Shown here in pieces: positions 87 to 6,754 of a stretch of DNA of 7,268 nt (positions are counted from its first letter, which is position 1; each line of letters starts with the position of its first letter). Origin of the DNA: Clostridia bacterium (GTDB taxonomy: Bacteria > Bacillota_A > Clostridia > Oscillospirales > Acutalibacteraceae). The stretch lies in contig JAFPAK010000006.1 of NCBI GenBank assembly GCA_017390825.1, forward strand, positions 1-7,268, read 5' to 3'. The notes under the pieces were generated by a model. That model saw nothing but the letters and a program-made list of their open reading frames with translations, made no database searches and was not told the origin of the DNA. The position numbers and the translations under genes were made by a program.

Positions 87-308
87 ATGACTGATTATAG
101 TACAACAAATTTTAAAGGGAAAAAGTATATGCTTACACAGGAAGCATATTGGAATGCCGGCACACAGATGTATCAGGCAAGTGCAGAAGACGAAGAAGGA
201 AACGTTTATATGGCGTATTTTGGAATCCTCGAAGGGCACGAGGACGATGAGTTCGAAGATACGATGTGTGATTGGGATCATGCGACAGATATCGAAAAAT
301 TGTGTTGA
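87..308 (+). CDS. Small acidic phage protein of unknown function (73 aa)
   Basis: This is the first gene after the promoter. It starts at ATG 87, seven bases after GAGGT (75-79). The 73-residue product is rich in Asp, Glu and aromatic residues (Tyr, Trp, Phe), with an acidic stretch around residues 51-58 and the sequence CDWDHATDI near the C-terminus. No signal peptide, membrane segment or nucleotide-binding motif is visible. The layout (a short beta-rich start with a Lys-Tyr pair, an EEGNVY turn, and a C-terminal C-D-W-D followed by an I-x-K-L ending) recalls small hypothetical proteins frequent in Clostridia phages and mobile elements, but I know no function for them. Small acidic early phage proteins are sometimes inhibitors of host or defence proteins; for this one that is speculation. 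Confidence 0.7.
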   Translation: MTDYSTTNFKGKKYMLTQEAYWNAGTQMYQASAEDEEGNVYMAYFGILEGHEDDEFEDTMCDWDHATDIEKLC

Positions 309-309
309 A

Positions 310-380
310 TAGCTTAACGCTGACGGCAGGGCGAAAGTCCTGTAAAGCTACACCCGACAGATTCAAAGCAGTCGGCAGGC
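310..380 (+). promoter_or_regulatory. Candidate structured RNA element in the intergenic leader of the HTH gene
   Basis: The gap between the first gene and the HTH gene has no ORF but folds well on paper. TAGCTT (310-315) pairs with AAGCTA (345-350) as an outer helix. Inside it CAGGGC (327-332) pairs with GTCCTG (337-342), with one G-U pair, closed by a GAAA tetraloop. A second hairpin pairs CCGAC (354-358) with GTCGG (371-375). CGGCAGG occurs twice (324-330 and 373-379), so the CCTG strand at 339-342 has two possible partners. The Shine-Dalgarno of the next gene begins at 391. There is no T-run, so it is not a terminator. I do not recognise a known riboswitch or ribozyme. A role in translation control or mRNA processing is inferred. 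Confidence 0.45.
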
Positions 381-390
381 TAAAAAATTT

Positions 391-2082: not shown

Positions 2083-3282
2083 ATGAACGTCTTAGAAAAA
2101 ATGCAAGCGGAGAACACTAAAGAACATATACAGCGTTTTATGGATAATCAAAAAATGCCCTACCCGCAAAAGAAATACCACGCATTGAGTCGTGTTATTG
2201 ATTTTTACCGCAAATGCGATCAGGAAGGCTACAACTATCATGTTTCCGTAGGCGGACTTGACAGCATAGTTTTATACTTGTTTATAAACTATTCCCCGAT
2301 GTTTAACGCATACAGAAATTATATCCCGTGCGGTTCTGTACCGGGTATATCTGCCAGTTACCTTGAGGACCCAAGCATTATAAGAGTACATAAAGCACTG
2401 GGCATTGAATGCGTCAAGCCTATGACTTACAAAGACGAAAACGGCGAAAAGAAGATGTACACCAAAACAAGCGTCATAGAACAGTTTGGTTTTCCGGTGT
2501 TGTCTAAAGAAATTGCCACAAAAATCGAAACCTTGCAGCATCCAACAGACAAAAACAAAACCGTAAGACACGCTATCATCACAGGCGAAACAGGTGCTTA
2601 CGGAGGTTATCAGAAAAACAGCAGAATGAAAATAGCCAAGAAATGGCTTGAATTGTTCGGTGGCTATGAAAATGAAACTGAAGGTACAAATTATGGTACT
2701 CCTGACTTTCAAGTGTCCGCAAAATGCTGCTATTACCTCAAAGAACAGCCTTGCGACAAATGGGCTAAAGAACATCATTCCGTACCATTTCTCGGACTCA
2801 TGGCAAGCGAGGGCGGCAGAAGAGAGAAAGTACTGAAAATGCATGGCTGTAACTACTGGGGCAAAACTTCTATCAGAAGTTGTCCGTTTGCTATTTTTAA
2901 CCGGCAAGACCTTTTGAAACTTGCTCTTGAAATGGATGATTTGTATAAATCAGAAATCAAAGAGCAACTGTACAAAGATGGAATAAAAAGCGGACGCTTA
3001 AAACCGAATTTTGAAATGCCTGGAAGTATTATACCGTCAATCTACGGCGAAATAGTCAAGGAAGATAACGGAGAACTCAAAACAACAAAGGCGCAAAGAA
3101 CAGGTTGCTCAATGTGCGGATTTGGAATCCACCTTGAAAAGCGACCTCACCGTTTTGATCTGCTCCGCGAACGTGACCCAAAGCAGTGGGAAAGGTTAAT
3201 GTATCACTTAGTTCAAGACGATGATGGTGATTGGTTCGGCTGGGCGAAGGTGCTGGACTATATCGGTGTAGACTACTTATAA
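2083..3282 (+). CDS. PP-loop (PAPS-reductase-like) ATP pyrophosphatase family protein
   Basis: An in-frame ATG exists at 2008, but ATG 2083 has GGAGGAG (2069-2075) 7 bases upstream and avoids a 71-base overlap, giving 399 residues. V-S-V-G-G-L-D-S (54-61) is the PP-loop that binds ATP pyrophosphate in the PAPS reductase/adenine nucleotide alpha-hydrolase superfamily; the usual first Ser of SGGxDS is Val here. K-C-C (214-216), G-C-N-Y-W-G (255-260) and T-G-C-S-M-C-G-F-G (340-348) with a following H-L-E and R-F are hallmarks of the phage branch. CC plus CxxC resembles the 4Fe-4S ligands of assimilatory APS reductases. The family also contains DndC/SspD of DNA phosphorothioation. The phage role is not established; sulfur chemistry or nucleotide activation on DNA or RNA is an inference. 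No cysteine synthesis genes are nearby. Confidence 0.88.
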   Translation: MNVLEKMQAENTKEHIQRFMDNQKMPYPQKKYHALSRVIDFYRKCDQEGYNYHVSVGGLDSIVLYLFINYSPMFNAYRNYIPCGSVPGISASYLEDPSIIRVHKALGIECVKPMTYKDENGEKKMYTKTSVIEQFGFPVLSKEIATKIETLQHPTDKNKTVRHAIITGETGAYGGYQKNSRMKIAKKWLELFGGYENETEGTNYGTPDFQVSAKCCYYLKEQPCDKWAKEHHSVPFLGLMASEGGRREKVLKMHGCNYWGKTSIRSCPFAIFNRQDLLKLALEMDDLYKSEIKEQLYKDGIKSGRLKPNFEMPGSIIPSIYGEIVKEDNGELKTTKAQRTGCSMCGFGIHLEKRPHRFDLLRERDPKQWERLMYHLVQDDDGDWFGWAKVLDYIGVDYL

Positions 3283-3320
3283 AAAAACCGCCCCCAAAAG
3301 CGGCAACTTTACGGGGGCGG
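3281..3320 (-). terminator. Intrinsic terminator oriented for the minus strand
   Basis: CCGCCCCC (3288-3295) pairs perfectly with GGGGGCGG (3313-3320). Within the 17-base loop AAAG (3297-3300) can pair with CTTT (3307-3310). Seven A at 3281-3287 become seven T immediately after the stem when read leftwards, the classic Rho-independent layout. Read rightwards the stem is followed by AAAGAAAATA, with no T-run, so it should not terminate the operon efficiently. It sits directly after the stop of the PP-loop gene. Confidence 0.75.
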
Positions 3321-3336
3321 AAAGAAAATAAATCAT
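3281..3336 (-). ncRNA. Predicted small antisense-strand RNA (about 55 nt)
   Basis: The minus-strand promoter at 3343-3371 should start transcription near 3336, and the minus-strand terminator hairpin with its T-run ends at 3281. The result is a transcript of about 56 nt: some 16 bases of U-rich leader, then a stem of 8 G/C pairs with a partly paired 17-base loop and a U tail. It is antisense to the untranslated stretch between the PP-loop and zinc-protein genes and to the last base or two of the PP-loop gene. Read-through would run antisense into that gene. A leaderless 19-codon reading frame (ATG at 3336 down to TAA at 3277) also fits but runs through the hairpin and may be chance. No sRNA family is recognised; existence is a prediction. 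Confidence 0.5.
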
Positions 3337-3342
3337 ACTAAA

Positions 3343-3371
3343 ATATTATCAGAAAAAAGAAAGGATGTCAA
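3343..3371 (-). promoter_or_regulatory. Minus-strand promoter pointing at the terminator
   Basis: Read on the minus strand, TTGACA (3371-3366) is followed after exactly 17 bases by TAATAT (3348-3343). The hexamers and spacing are the same as in the promoter at 10-38. GATAAT two bases earlier is an alternative -10. The -35 region adjoins the Shine-Dalgarno (AAAGGA, 3360-3365) of the zinc-protein gene on the other strand. Transcription would run left into the terminator at 3320-3281. Confidence 0.6.
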
Positions 3372-3373
3372 GA

Positions 3374-3583
3374 ATGAGCTACGAAATAAAAGGATTAGGC
3401 GCTGCACAAACAGCGTACGACAACTTTACTCCGGGTGATGAATCGCCGCTGTATCACTGCGATACCTGCGGTACGGAGATATACGAGGGTGAAGAGTGCT
3501 ACTACAACGGCTATACAGAAAAGTGGTATTGTGACAGCTGTGTTCGTAAAAAAACGGCAGAAAGAGAGGTATACGAGGAATGA
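3374..3583 (+). CDS. Small zinc-binding phage protein with two CxxC pairs (69 aa)
   Basis: Two in-frame ATGs lie at 3365 and 3374. The first overlaps the Shine-Dalgarno AGAAAGGA (3358-3365), while 3374 is 8 bases behind it, so 3374 is preferred. The 69-residue product carries C29-D-T-C32, a further C42, and C53-D-S-C56, with G-D and Y-Y-N-G/K-W-Y-C between. This resembles the paired-knuckle layout of LIM-like or zinc-ribbon proteins that mediate protein or nucleic-acid contacts. The ends are Gln/Ala-rich and Glu-rich. TGA overlaps the ATG of the Gp157-like gene (ATGA, 3580-3583), tying it to the recombination cassette. Specific function unknown. Its translation start region faces the minus-strand promoter. 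Confidence 0.75.
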   Translation: MSYEIKGLGAAQTAYDNFTPGDESPLYHCDTCGTEIYEGEECYYNGYTEKWYCDSCVRKKTAEREVYEE

Positions 3584-4104
3584 GTATATACAACATTTCG
3601 GCAAATTATAGGGCGTTGTTTGACACATTTGACAACGCAGAAGACTTGACAGACGAAGAGATTGAGGCATATTTTGACACGCTCGAAGGCATTGAGGACG
3701 AGTTTGACATAAAAGTCGAGAACATAGCTTGCTACATTAAAAGCCTTAATGGAGATGTAGACCTGATAGACAAAGAGATTGAGGCTTTAAAGAGAAGAAA
3801 ACAGGTCAAAGAGAACCTCATTACCCGCCTGAAAAAAATGCTGGTTGAGAATATGCAGAGAATCAAAAAGACAAAAATCGACCGTCCGAGGGCAAAGCTA
3901 ACTTTAAAAAACAATGCCGAACAAGCGCATTTTACCGATGAAACAGCGTTTTTGAACTGGGCAAAAGAACAGCATAAAGACAGGTTTATAAACACGTCAA
4001 TTAAACAGACGTTAAGCAAAACAGCGGTCAAAAATGCATTACAAAACGGTGAAAAACTCCCCGGAGCGTGGCTTGAAAAGTCCGTTTCGGTTATCATAAA
4101 ATGA
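3580..4104 (+). CDS. Siphovirus Gp157-like protein
   Basis: ATG 3580 overlaps the previous stop by four bases, with AGAGAGGT (3563-3570) 9 bases upstream. The 174-residue product has an acidic N-terminal part (A-E-D-L-T-D-E-E-I-E-A-Y-F-D-T-L), a long heptad-like charged helix (about residues 45-100, E-I-E-A-L-K-R-R-K...), then a short C-terminal domain ending W-L-E-K-S-V-S-V-I-I-K. This is the organisation of the Sipho_Gp157 family, first described from Streptococcus thermophilus phage Sfi21, whose expression was linked to phage resistance. In Firmicutes phages it commonly precedes an ATPase, DUF669 and helicase, as here, implying a role in DNA replication or recombination. The coiled coil suggests oligomerisation. 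Mechanism is not established. Confidence 0.85.
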   Translation: MSIYNISANYRALFDTFDNAEDLTDEEIEAYFDTLEGIEDEFDIKVENIACYIKSLNGDVDLIDKEIEALKRRKQVKENLITRLKKMLVENMQRIKKTKIDRPRAKLTLKNNAEQAHFTDETAFLNWAKEQHKDRFINTSIKQTLSKTAVKNALQNGEKLPGAWLEKSVSVIIK

Positions 4105-4122
4105 TAAAGTGAGGTGCTATTA

Positions 4123-4749
4123 ATGGGTATGCCCGTACTGATCTACGGCAAATCGGGGAGTGGAAAGAGCCGCAGCCTGAAAGAGTTTGCCGAAGACGAG
4201 ATTTTTTTAGTAAATGTTGAGCGAAAATATTTACCGTTCCGCAAGAAGTTTAAATATATATATGAATCCGACGACGCCGAAAAAATCAAAGCAGGCTTGA
4301 AAAAAATGCCTACAAAAGCCGCCATCATCGATGACGCAGGCTATATTTTGACCAACATTTTTATGCGGGGAAATTCGAAGAAAAAAACAGGCGGCGATGT
4401 TTTCGACTTGTACAATCGTATCGGCTACGAGTTTTGGAACTTGTTTGAGTTCATCAAAACAGATCTGCCAAAAGACGTAATTGTATATATTATTATGCAC
4501 GATGAAACTGACGATTATGGCAACACAAAGCTTAAAATGCTCGGCAAATTGCTTGAGCAAAAAGTCTGTGTCGAGGGAATGGTGACTATATGCCTGCGCT
4601 GTTTTACAGACGAAAAAGGGCATCATTTTCTCACGAACACAGATGGCAATGACATCACAAAGTCACCCGAAGAAATGTTTACAGACAAAGTCATTGACAA
4701 TGACTTAAAGTTTGTTGATGATACGATAAGAAAATATTATGAAATTTAA
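4123..4749 (+). CDS. P-loop ATPase of phage recombination modules (Sak4/RecA-like or AAA)
   Basis: GTG 4114 overlaps the Shine-Dalgarno GAGGTG (4111-4116); ATG 4123, 6 bases after it, is the better start and gives 208 residues. Walker A G-K-S-G-S-G-K-S is at residues 9-16, right at the N-terminus, and Walker B A-I-I-D-D-A-G-Y at 67-74. V-I-V-Y-I-I-M-H-D-E (119-128) is in the position of a sensor strand. Such minimal RecA-core ATPases next to Gp157 and an SSB-like gene are annotated as AAA ATP-binding proteins, and many are related to the Sak4 single-strand-annealing mediators. The likely role is ATP-dependent loading or remodelling on single-stranded DNA. Sak4 membership versus another AAA family cannot be settled by eye. 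Confidence 0.85.
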   Translation: MGMPVLIYGKSGSGKSRSLKEFAEDEIFLVNVERKYLPFRKKFKYIYESDDAEKIKAGLKKMPTKAAIIDDAGYILTNIFMRGNSKKKTGGDVFDLYNRIGYEFWNLFEFIKTDLPKDVIVYIIMHDETDDYGNTKLKMLGKLLEQKVCVEGMVTICLRCFTDEKGHHFLTNTDGNDITKSPEEMFTDKVIDNDLKFVDDTIRKYYEI

Positions 4750-4769
4750 TAATAAGAGAGGTTTTAGAA

Positions 4770-5363
4770 ATGAAAGGATTACCCGACTACAACAACATTC
4801 CCGAGTATACAGACTCCGTTAAACTCCCTGCTGGGGCGTACGAAATCACCATAAGTAGGGCAGAGGAGAAAAGCGACAAAACAGGCGATCAGCTTTGTAT
4901 TCTGTTTGATATTTCAAACGGTGAATACGCAAACTATTATATGGATAAATTTAAAGCTGAGAAAAGGTCTTACCCCGATAAAGCAAAATACAAGGGCGTT
5001 CTCCGCTTGTGGTATCCAAACGGCGGGCAGTACGATGACAGCAACAAAAAGCGCATGAAAACTACACTTGAACGCATAAAGCAGAGCAATAACCTGCGTA
5101 TTGACTTTTCAAAAGACTGGGACGGCGCAGCTCTCAAAGGCTGTAAGGTCGGAATGATATTCCGTGAGCAAGAATGGAGCTACAACGGCATGACAGGTAT
5201 GACAGCACAGCCTTATCAGGTCATCACGCTTGATGCACTCAAAAACGGCGATTTTACCCTGCCGAACCCGAAATATCTATCACCCAGTGATAACGATAAC
5301 TATGTACCGAATAACAACTTTGTGCCGCTTGAAACTCCTGCTCCTGATGATCTGCCGTTTTAA
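4770..5363 (+). CDS. DUF669 family single-stranded-DNA-binding-like protein
   Basis: ATG 4770 has AGAGAGG (4755-4761) 8 bases upstream. The 197-residue product begins with a short N-terminal arm and L-P-A-G-A-Y-E-I-T-I-S-R-A, continues through L-R-L-W-Y-P-N and G-C-K-V-G-M-I-F-R-E-Q-E-W, then a disordered Asn/Pro/Asp-rich linker (about 170-190) ending in D-D-L-P-F. The linker plus acidic tip is the hallmark of bacterial SSB C-termini (DDDIPF in E. coli), which recruit replication and repair proteins. DUF669 proteins sit between the ATPase and helicase in many Firmicutes phages and are regarded as phage SSB equivalents. It would coat single-stranded DNA and contact the helicase, ATPase or host proteins. 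Confidence 0.87.
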   Translation: MKGLPDYNNIPEYTDSVKLPAGAYEITISRAEEKSDKTGDQLCILFDISNGEYANYYMDKFKAEKRSYPDKAKYKGVLRLWYPNGGQYDDSNKKRMKTTLERIKQSNNLRIDFSKDWDGAALKGCKVGMIFREQEWSYNGMTGMTAQPYQVITLDALKNGDFTLPNPKYLSPSDNDNYVPNNNFVPLETPAPDDLPF

Positions 5364-5365
5364 AA

Positions 5366-6754
5366 ATGGAGCTTAGAGACTATCAAAAAGACCTTATCGA
5401 ACGATTTTTTTCTGCATTGGATAACGGCTATAAAGCCCCTTGTATTGTACTGCCTTGCGGCGGCGGTAAGTCCATTATCCTTGCGGAAATCGCACGGCGA
5501 TACACTGCAAACTATAAAGATGTATTGTTTTTAGTGCACCGACAAGAGTTGGTAAGGCAGATATTTTCAACATTCGTTCGTTACGGCGTTAAAATGGATT
5601 TTTGCGAAATCGCTATGGTTCAAACGCTCACACGACACGTTAAATCAACTCGGAAACCCGAGCTGATAATAACAGACGAAAATCATCATTCTTTAGCTAA
5701 ATCATATAAACACATTTACAATTATTTTTCAGACGTTCCCCGAATAGGTGTGACAGCGACGCCGGAAAGAATAGACGGGTCCGGCTTGCAAGATGTAAAT
5801 GACATATTAATCGAGGGTGTAACGGCTAAATGGCTGATAGATAACGGCTATTTAGCACCGTATGACTATTACGCTCCTGCTGTTGAAATGCCGAAATTCC
5901 ATACCCGAAACGGCGATTTTATACAGTCTGAAGTCGCAGGATTTTTTGAAAAAAACAAAACTAAAATCTACGGTGATGTAATTAAACATTATCGAAGAAT
6001 CGCAGACGGAAAGCAAACTATTTGCTATCTTCCGACCGTGGAATTTTCGAGAAGAACAGCGGAAAATTTTACTGCAAACGGAATACCGTCAGCGCATATT
6101 GACGGAACTACACCGCAGAGGGAACGAGAACAGGCGATAGAAGATTTCAGGCAAGGTAAAATTAAAATACTTTGCAATGTCGATATTGTTTCCGAGGGCT
6201 TTGACGTACCCGACTGCGAATGCGTCATTCTTTTACGTCCTACGAAGTCGCTGATTTTGTACACTCAGCAGTCTATGAGATGTATGCGGTATAAACCGGG
6301 AAAGCGTGCGATAATCATAGATCACGTCAACAATATCGGTCGTTTTGGTTTTCCGGATCGGGAAAGGGAATGGCTTTTAGAGGGACACCCACACAAAAAA
6401 AGCGAAAGCGAACAGCCGATGAAAGTCTGTAAGATGTGCTATGCAGCAGTGCCGATAAGCACAAGAGTTTGCCCGATCTGCGGCACGGAATTTGACTTTG
6501 AAAAGCATGACAAACAAAAGGTCGATACAGACCTTATAAAGCTTGACAGCACAAAAAATAGGGTTAAATACTACTTAACTCCTGCCGAATGTCAGACGGT
6601 TGAGGAGCTTAAAGCGTACGCAAAAATGAAAGGCTATAAGCCCGGTTGGGTGTACTATCAGCAAAAGCAAAGGGGGTGGCTCGGTGGTGAAAAACGAAGA
6701 AACGAAACTGCAAGACGCTATCCGTGCAGAGCTATCGAAGGCTGGAATAGTTAG
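5366..6754 (+). CDS. Superfamily 2 DEAD/DEAH-type DNA helicase with C-terminal zinc ribbon
   Basis: ATG 5366 comes two bases after the DUF669 stop with no clear Shine-Dalgarno, so it probably depends on reinitiation. The 462-residue product has Q-motif-like L-R-D-Y-Q (3-7), Walker A P-C-G-G-G-K-S (30-36), D-E-N-H (104-107) in the DEAH position, T-A-T-P (130-133), motif V D-I-V-S-E-G-F-D-V-P (273-282) and motif VI Q-S-M-R-C-M-R (302-308; the usual Gly before the first Arg is Met). A zinc ribbon follows (C355xxC358 and C369xxC372), then a C-terminal stretch with G-W-V-Y-Y. It resembles RecG/UvsW-style phage helicases that unwind or branch-migrate DNA. The last 23 residues (from about 440) are encoded inside the nuclease gene and look like a tail beyond the family's usual G-W ending. 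Confidence 0.93.
   Translation: MELRDYQKDLIERFFSALDNGYKAPCIVLPCGGGKSIILAEIARRYTANYKDVLFLVHRQELVRQIFSTFVRYGVKMDFCEIAMVQTLTRHVKSTRKPELIITDENHHSLAKSYKHIYNYFSDVPRIGVTATPERIDGSGLQDVNDILIEGVTAKWLIDNGYLAPYDYYAPAVEMPKFHTRNGDFIQSEVAGFFEKNKTKIYGDVIKHYRRIADGKQTICYLPTVEFSRRTAENFTANGIPSAHIDGTTPQREREQAIEDFRQGKIKILCNVDIVSEGFDVPDCECVILLRPTKSLILYTQQSMRCMRYKPGKRAIIIDHVNNIGRFGFPDREREWLLEGHPHKKSESEQPMKVCKMCYAAVPISTRVCPICGTEFDFEKHDKQKVDTDLIKLDSTKNRVKYYLTPAECQTVEELKAYAKMKGYKPGWVYYQQKQRGWLGGEKRRNETARRYPCRAIEGWNS

What the first reader, a model, noticed from the sequence alone, without database searches (positions are those of the whole stretch)
3281..3371. A complete minus-strand transcription unit hidden in a plus-strand operon
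Within 91 bases, read leftwards: TTGACA (3371-3366), exactly 17 bases, TAATAT (3348-3343), about 20 bases, then an 8-bp G/C stem (3320-3313 with 3295-3288) and seven T. This is a promoter aimed straight at an intrinsic terminator, predicting an RNA of about 55 nt opposite to all genes. The hexamers and spacing match those of the operon promoter at 10-38, so the same polymerase should use both. It could be a regulatory sRNA, an antisense control on the PP-loop gene by read-through, or a transcription roadblock that lowers expression of the replication cassette. No family is recognised.
Basis: partly seen in the sequence, partly recalled or inferred. Interest (0 to 1): 0.72.

Follow-up and report, generated by a model that had tools for sequence, protein, structure and literature searches.

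The report
Phage antisense small-RNA gene
A tiny gene on the strand opposite a phage early operon looks like a real small-RNA gene, one of a recurring family in phages of related gut bacteria, laid out like two classic phage antisense RNAs.

Summary
It is not chance: related phages carry the same unit, and a covariance model built from 21 other copies, the window left out, finds it at 65.2 bits, E 1.6e-11. An earlier model finds the unit in 29 of 394 genomes of one order of Clostridia but in 3 of 391 sampled across the class. In the window it fills the gap between two genes: hairpin at the upstream stop, -35 box at the next start codon. No Rfam family reaches its cut-off there. It works like lambda oop and P22 sar, short antisense RNAs at similar junctions, and shares their U-N-N-C-[A/C]-G hairpin loop, but the model does not detect those RNAs. 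Best reading: a ~56-nt small RNA, probably antisense to the early mRNA just before the recombination/replication genes. Hfq-assisted action in trans is open: three prophages with the unit carry their own Hfq. No RNA has been seen; expression and function are inference.

The parts
3366..3371 (-). -35 box TTGACA
3343..3348 (-). -10 box TAATAT, 17-nt spacer, TG in front of it
3336..3336 (-). predicted RNA start (A after T, 7 nt behind the -10; aligned copies have GTR here)
   Evidence: inference; no 5' end was mapped
3321..3336 (-). U-rich unpaired leader of the predicted RNA
3288..3320 (-). hairpin: outer G/C stem 3320-3313/3295-3288, inner stem 3310-3307/3300-3297, loop UUGCCG 3306-3301
   Evidence: family structure and covariation
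3281..3287 (-). T-run of the terminator; its complement contains the AA of the upstream stop codon
2083..3282 (+). upstream gene, PP-loop/PAPS-reductase-like (phrog_424), stop TAA 3280-3282
3374..3583 (+). downstream gene, 69 aa, cysteine-rich; no PHROG or Pfam match (an alternative ATG lies at 3365)
3580..6754 (+). cassette behind it: Gp157, AAA_24 ATPase, a gene without Pfam match, ResIII/Helicase_C helicase

Best explanation
It is a small-RNA gene, one copy of a recurring family in temperate phages of one order of Clostridia. The host sigma-70 polymerase would start near 3336 and stop after about 56 nt at the hairpin by the upstream stop codon. The RNA is perfectly complementary to the early mRNA between the PP-loop gene and the recombination/replication genes. 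Most likely it pairs there, hairpin loop first, and leads to cleavage (RNase III type) or lower expression across that junction, as lambda oop does for cII-O. Because the early operon reads through its promoter, it should be most active when the operon is off. Shown here: anatomy, conservation, covariation, antisense placement. Inferred: that it is transcribed (about 0.9), that it acts as cis antisense (about 0.45), and the timing. The confidence given is for the whole statement.
For: Model without the window finds it at E 1.6e-11, full length, all pairs standard. Covariation on 57 distinct copies: 93.8% of cells paired against 73.2% shuffled, score 0.610 against 0.232; a plain MAFFT alignment folds into a two-part hairpin, 7 of 12 pairs with compensatory changes. 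Start codon with Shine-Dalgarno at the -35 in 17 of 34 held-out and 8 of 24 seed-group copies against 59 of 3507 control hexamers. 29 of 394 genomes in the order, 3 of 391 across the class. Same kind of layout and hairpin loop as lambda oop, P22 oop and P22 sar, for which antisense action is reported (PMC5869508 and PMC5415839, passages).
Against: No transcript seen. The RNA starts about 24 nt before the Shine-Dalgarno sequence of the next gene and hardly overlaps coding sequence, so it cannot mask that ribosome site as sar is said to. R2 does not detect oop or sar. Part of the copies lie inside a sense reading frame (14 of 58 without a start codon at the -35). The covariation alignment was fitted to the model. 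Of 32 newly found loci, 6 have more ORF length on the unit's own strand; L283 is resolved as antisense by a larger map, the other five are not, and the larger map of one of them (L300 for L267) still shows ORFs on the unit's strand.
Confidence: 0.55

Rival explanations
1. Trans-acting, Hfq-assisted small RNA: U-rich leader, hairpin and U-tail form an Hfq-binding end, and the RNA regulates other phage or host mRNAs; some phages bring their own Hfq.
For: Leader 62% T against 31% in 458 control terminators. Of 394 genomes only G268 and G352 have more than one Hfq match; both carry the unit, and the three extra copies lie 1.4-4 kb from it in prophages. Hfq in 19 of 29 unit-bearing against 160 of 365 other genomes, p 0.03.
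Against: Leader of only about 15 nt; pairing of 18 leaders to start regions of neighbouring genes is no better than shuffled (mean z -0.07, the window's own +2.49, i.e. worse). Hfq not found in 10 of 29 unit-bearing genomes, one of them with six units. No new full prophage Hfq in 87 family genomes or by two viral scans. An abstract says that sRNAs of Gram-positive bacteria bind targets independently of Hfq (PMC10628458, listing).
Confidence: 0.25
2. Transcription interference: the sitting or firing antisense polymerase hinders the operon; the RNA is a by-product.
For: Near-consensus promoters facing the operon, placed over the ribosome site of the next gene.
Against: Does not need the conserved two-part hairpin, its loop or the U-rich leader.
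Confidence: 0.12
3. Sense-strand mRNA element: the hairpin stabilises or spaces the sense mRNA, and the promoter match is incidental.
For: 14 of 58 copies lie in an open sense frame without a start codon at the -35.
Against: Antisense promoter and hairpin go together at PP-loop junctions without use of any model (7 of 21 against 8 of 121, p 0.0017), sense ones do not (0 of 2, 3 of 140); T-run and U-rich leader are on the antisense strand.
Confidence: 0.04
4. Replication primer or origin part.
For: Stands before the recombination/replication genes in the window.
Against: Copies also lie in the repressor-side operon (L243, L255, L110). For lambda oop a review says the RNA is not the primer (PMC12197685, passage).
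Confidence: 0.04

Closest known systems
P22 sar RNA (Rfam RF00262)
   Same: Antisense unit fitted between two genes (arc ends 15022, RNA 15021-15090 minus, ant starts 15091); two-part hairpin with UUACCG loop
   Different: sar reaches up to the ant start and its promoter lies inside ant; here the -35 is at the start codon and the RNA ends some 24 nt before the ribosome site. Rfam model scores 15.8 bits (cut-off 43); R2 does not find sar
Lambda and P22 oop RNA
   Same: Short antisense RNA with intrinsic terminator in the early operon at the border of the replication genes; loops UUGCCG and UUCCCG; P22 oop has the same outer stem/internal loop/inner stem
   Different: 52 bases of lambda oop overlap the end of cII (PMC5869508, passage), whereas the window's RNA overlaps only the stop codon; longer leader; not found by R2
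Enterococcus Ref84 (Rfam RF02846, type antisense)
   Same: Best Rfam match to the window, aligned over the whole unit incl. U-rich part and terminator
   Different: 24.8 bits against a cut-off of 52, E 0.17
Hfq-binding sRNA ends
   Same: U-rich stretch, hairpin, U-tail (layout recalled; two abstracts on sRNA terminators seen in the listing)
   Different: Very short leader; binding untested

Membership tests
Recurrent antisense unit of this report (R1, R2) | Full-length match to a model built without the window | tested here: met
   65.2 bits, E 1.6e-11
Recurrent antisense unit of this report (R1, R2) | -35 box at the start codon of the next opposite gene | tested here: met
   window ATG 3374
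Recurrent antisense unit of this report (R1, R2) | A transcript | not testable with these tools
   no expression data at hand
lambda/P22 oop | Sequence/structure match to the RNA | tested here: not met
   R2 finds neither oop RNA in L338 and L339
lambda/P22 oop | Antisense RNA with terminator between a CII-type gene and the replication gene | tested here: inconclusive
   before a recombination/replication cassette, but the upstream gene is PP-loop; a CII-like upstream gene in 1 of 42 relatives scanned
P22 sar (RF00262) | Rfam gathering score 43 bits | tested here: not met
   15.8 bits
P22 sar (RF00262) | RNA covers the ribosome site of the downstream gene | tested here: not met
   predicted start 3336, Shine-Dalgarno 3360-3365
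Ref84 (RF02846) | Rfam gathering score 52 bits | tested here: not met
   24.8 bits
Hfq-dependent sRNA | Binding to Hfq | not testable with these tools
   only layout and gene neighbourhood

The most novel reading that the evidence does not exclude
A family of tiny phage small RNAs, spread over temperate phages of one order of gut Clostridia, that works with host or phage-encoded Hfq from both the early and the repressor-side operon to set the lysis-lysogeny balance, and that shares its U-N-N-C-[A/C]-G hairpin loop with lambda oop and P22 sar because that loop does a common job in phage antisense RNAs.
Probability: 0.22. Interest if true: 0.85.

Novelty: new variant of a known kind. Interest (0 to 1): 0.66.

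Why it matters
Phage antisense small RNAs are known mostly from single enterobacterial cases (as far as I recall and as the reviews seen in passages present them). A family with a searchable model in phages of gut bacteria would let RNA control of phage development be studied across many phages at once. The loop shared with oop and sar, and the prophage Hfq genes near the unit, give direct tests of how such RNAs act.

Tried and rejected
Chance: rejected. Known Rfam family: none at gathering score for the unit in 14 sources (112,400 bases; only FuFi-1 and a tRNA elsewhere); in the window only matches below cut-off. Pairing of leaders to start regions of neighbouring genes: no signal in 18 loci. 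Searches with the window's own proteins in viral and genome contigs found no relative; an alignment of homologues did. Prophage Hfq in viral contigs: two scans gave pattern matches but no confirmed relative, so the Hfq link rests on three prophages in two genomes. In 87 family genomes G831 has a second Hfq match, but over profile positions 1-25 only, not followed up. The weak single Hfq matches of G100 and G239 cover part of the profile (26-63 and 1-25), and R1 finds no unit there. Perfect 12/12 promoters alone are not special: 16 on plus and 13 on minus in 1.23 Mb.

Novelty searches: (open-licence PMC only) showed no description of this unit among the listed titles and abstract starts. Papers: passages of PMC12197685, PMC5869508, PMC5415839 and PMC13397905; every other paper as search listing only.

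Full report
What is there. The minus strand of 3281-3371 carries TTGACA (3371-3366), 17 bases, TAATAT (3348-3343), a G/C hairpin and seven T. The 17-base 'loop' folds further (AAAG/CUUU around UUGCCG), and the predicted RNA folds at -22.8 kcal/mol against a shuffle mean of -11.4, 0 of 200 as good. In 400 dinucleotide shuffles of the window none holds such a promoter-hairpin pair, by criteria set after seeing it. The unit fills the gap between two plus-strand genes: its T-run takes in the AA of the upstream stop codon, and its -35 box lies between Shine-Dalgarno and ATG (3374) of the next gene.

Where it lies. Upstream is a PP-loop/PAPS-reductase-like gene (phrog_424). Downstream come a small cysteine-rich protein without family match, Gp157, an AAA_24 ATPase, a gene without Pfam match and a ResIII/Helicase_C helicase. 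No whole genome is held for the window.

How the family was found. Homologues of the PP-loop protein gave alignment A1 (20 sequences) and 80 viral plus 80 genomic loci, the best 80 of 216 and of 120 (L076-L235). Scanning the antisense strand showed near-perfect promoters with the -35 at the next start codon and a hairpin with T-run behind. With loci turned so that the PP-loop gene is on plus, distinct promoter-terminator pairs were 34 on minus and 6 on plus. A pattern scan of viral contigs gave 21 further stretches, some with the unit, some plainly something else. Eighteen copies chosen by eye for promoter and hairpin were aligned (A2) and made into model R1.

Independent support. R1 finds 29 of 394 genomes of the order of G001 at E <= 1e-4 per genome, 45 matches listed; about 0.04 would be expected if the E-values were exact, and they are rough. 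G001 itself holds seed copies; it is the genome of L223, Anaeromassilibacillus senegalensis (title). That its order is Oscillospirales is recalled, no call names it. Across the class 3 of 391 genomes match, two of them (G001, G039) already in the order set. In the family of G352 it is 25 of 87 at E <= 0.001. Eight whole genomes of 2.3-3.6 Mb with known copies hold one to seven matches at E <= 0.01, so R1 is not simply a promoter or terminator finder. R2, built from 21 copies without the window (A8), finds the window at 65.2 bits, E 1.6e-11 over 7268 bases, full length; its only other match there has E 0.99.

Structure. On 57 distinct copies (A3) 93.8% of pair cells are standard against 73.2% in shuffles, 95 cells have both sides changed against 26.4, the covariation score is 0.610 against 0.232, and sliding the partner by 1-3 columns gives at most 0.185. 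A3 was fitted to the model's structure, which favours it. RNAalifold on the plain MAFFT alignment A8 predicts a two-part hairpin, 7 of 12 pairs with compensatory changes.

Placement. In 38 of 58 copies a start codon (ATG, GTG or TTG) of a sense ORF of at least 35 codons lies at the -35 box, and 14 more lie inside an open sense frame. Stricter (ORF of at least 50 codons plus Shine-Dalgarno): 17 of 34 held-out and 8 of 24 seed-group copies against 59 of 3507 control hexamers. The upstream stop lies 0-4 bases from the unit's edge in 14 of 58. In 26 of 32 newly found loci more ORF length lies opposite to the unit (crude ORF tiling). Of the six others, L283 is resolved as antisense by the larger map L294, where an AAA_23 gene starts at the unit; L260, L263, L265, L267 and L269 are not resolved, and the larger map of L267 (L300) still shows ORFs on the unit's own strand. 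At PP-loop 3' junctions, without any model, antisense hairpin and promoter go together (7 of 21 against 8 of 121, p 0.0017), sense ones do not (0 of 2 and 3 of 140).

Neighbours. I scanned 41 of the 50 downstream and 42 of the 57 upstream proteins collected; near-duplicates and unclear frames were dropped by hand. Downstream: AAA_23 in 5, SbcC-like phrog_77 in 4, phrog_424 in 3, PcfK, PcfJ, DUF4041 and a phage integrase in 1 each, most families without known function. Upstream: phrog_424 in 5, several regulator or repressor families (phrog_8 in 5, phrog_2967 in 4, phrog_4 in 3; members can overlap), a CII-like regulator in 1. In larger maps the unit stands before genes that look by eye like recombination/replication genes in L301, L304 and L305; L297, L302 and L300 are less clear. 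L243, L255 and L110 have a second copy opposite the repressor-side operon.

What it works like. P22 sar is annotated at 15021-15090 minus, between arc (ends 15022) and ant (starts 15091); P22 oop lies at the c1/orf48 junction; the lambda oop region lies at the cII-O junction. The folded hairpins have loops UUGCCG (lambda), UUACCG (sar) and UUCCCG (P22 oop). The pattern U-N-N-C-[A/C]-G on a stem of at least 3 bp is in 27 of 57 units and in 16 of 416 other terminators of the loci (p 2e-17); at least four of those 16 are further copies of the unit (L187, L189, L249, L254), so the contrast is understated. The other 30 units have other loops, heptaloops among them. Of ten annotated P22 terminators the pattern is in sar and oop only; the a23 and aI terminators lack it. 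The pattern was chosen after seeing the data. R2 does not detect lambda or P22 RNAs: likeness, not membership.

Hfq. The 12 nt before the hairpin are 62% T against 31% in 458 control terminators; R1 partly selects for this, and I did not compute the seeds apart. U-rich stretch, hairpin and U-tail is the layout of Hfq-binding sRNA ends (recalled). Of the 394 genomes 179 have Hfq, and only G268 and G352 have more than one match; both carry the unit, and the three extra copies lie 1.4-4 kb from it in prophages, two of them beside an integrase gene. Hfq is in 19 of 29 unit-bearing against 160 of 365 other genomes (p 0.03); intergenic units are in Hfq-positive genomes in 18 of 21 cases, in-gene units in 1 of 8 (p 0.0005; sorted by hand, genomes partly incomplete, clades not controlled). 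Against: G001, with six units, has no detected Hfq; no new full prophage Hfq in 87 family genomes or by two viral scans; leader pairing no better than shuffled.

Mechanism. Shown: a conserved antisense promoter-leader-hairpin unit. Inferred: an RNA of about 56 nt. Most likely action: antisense pairing with the early mRNA at the border of the replication genes, with cleavage or reduced expression, as reported for OOP (PMC5869508, PMC5415839, passages). It cannot mask the downstream ribosome site, because it starts about 24 nt before it. Since the early operon reads through its promoter, I expect the RNA mainly when the operon is off.

Verdict.

Noticed in passing
L292:4393-4620 (-), L293:9750-9977 (+), L294:7965-8159 (-): Prophage-encoded Hfq proteins (Pfam Hfq, 64 to 100 bits), two beside an integrase gene, all in prophages that carry the antisense unit.
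   Followed up: partly
window 300-390 (+): G/C-rich repeats (CTGACGGCAGG..., GACAG...CAGTCGGCAGG) between the first two plus-strand ORFs look like another structured intergenic RNA; no Rfam match.
   Followed up: no
downstream of the PP-loop gene in L111, L112, L117, L193, L213, L219: A recurring stretch of the form GGAACCTCC...GGGGTAAC...GGTTCCT before the next gene, seen in the output; a possible second structured element.
   Followed up: no
L178:3451-3609 (-): FuFi-1 RNA (Rfam RF02986, 126.9 bits) upstream of the PP-loop gene in a locus that also carries the unit.
   Followed up: no
L156, L259, L258, L223, L243, L255, L257: Where the unit lies inside a gene, the sense frame reads as a similar N-terminal stretch (K-K-x-A-x-G-x-A-x-P/T-like) in otherwise different proteins.
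   Followed up: partly
L243:780-891 (+), L255:2186-2300 (+): The repressor-side copies have operator-like inverted repeats (GTGATATA...TATATCAC) over the promoter, so these copies may be controlled by the repressor.
   Followed up: no
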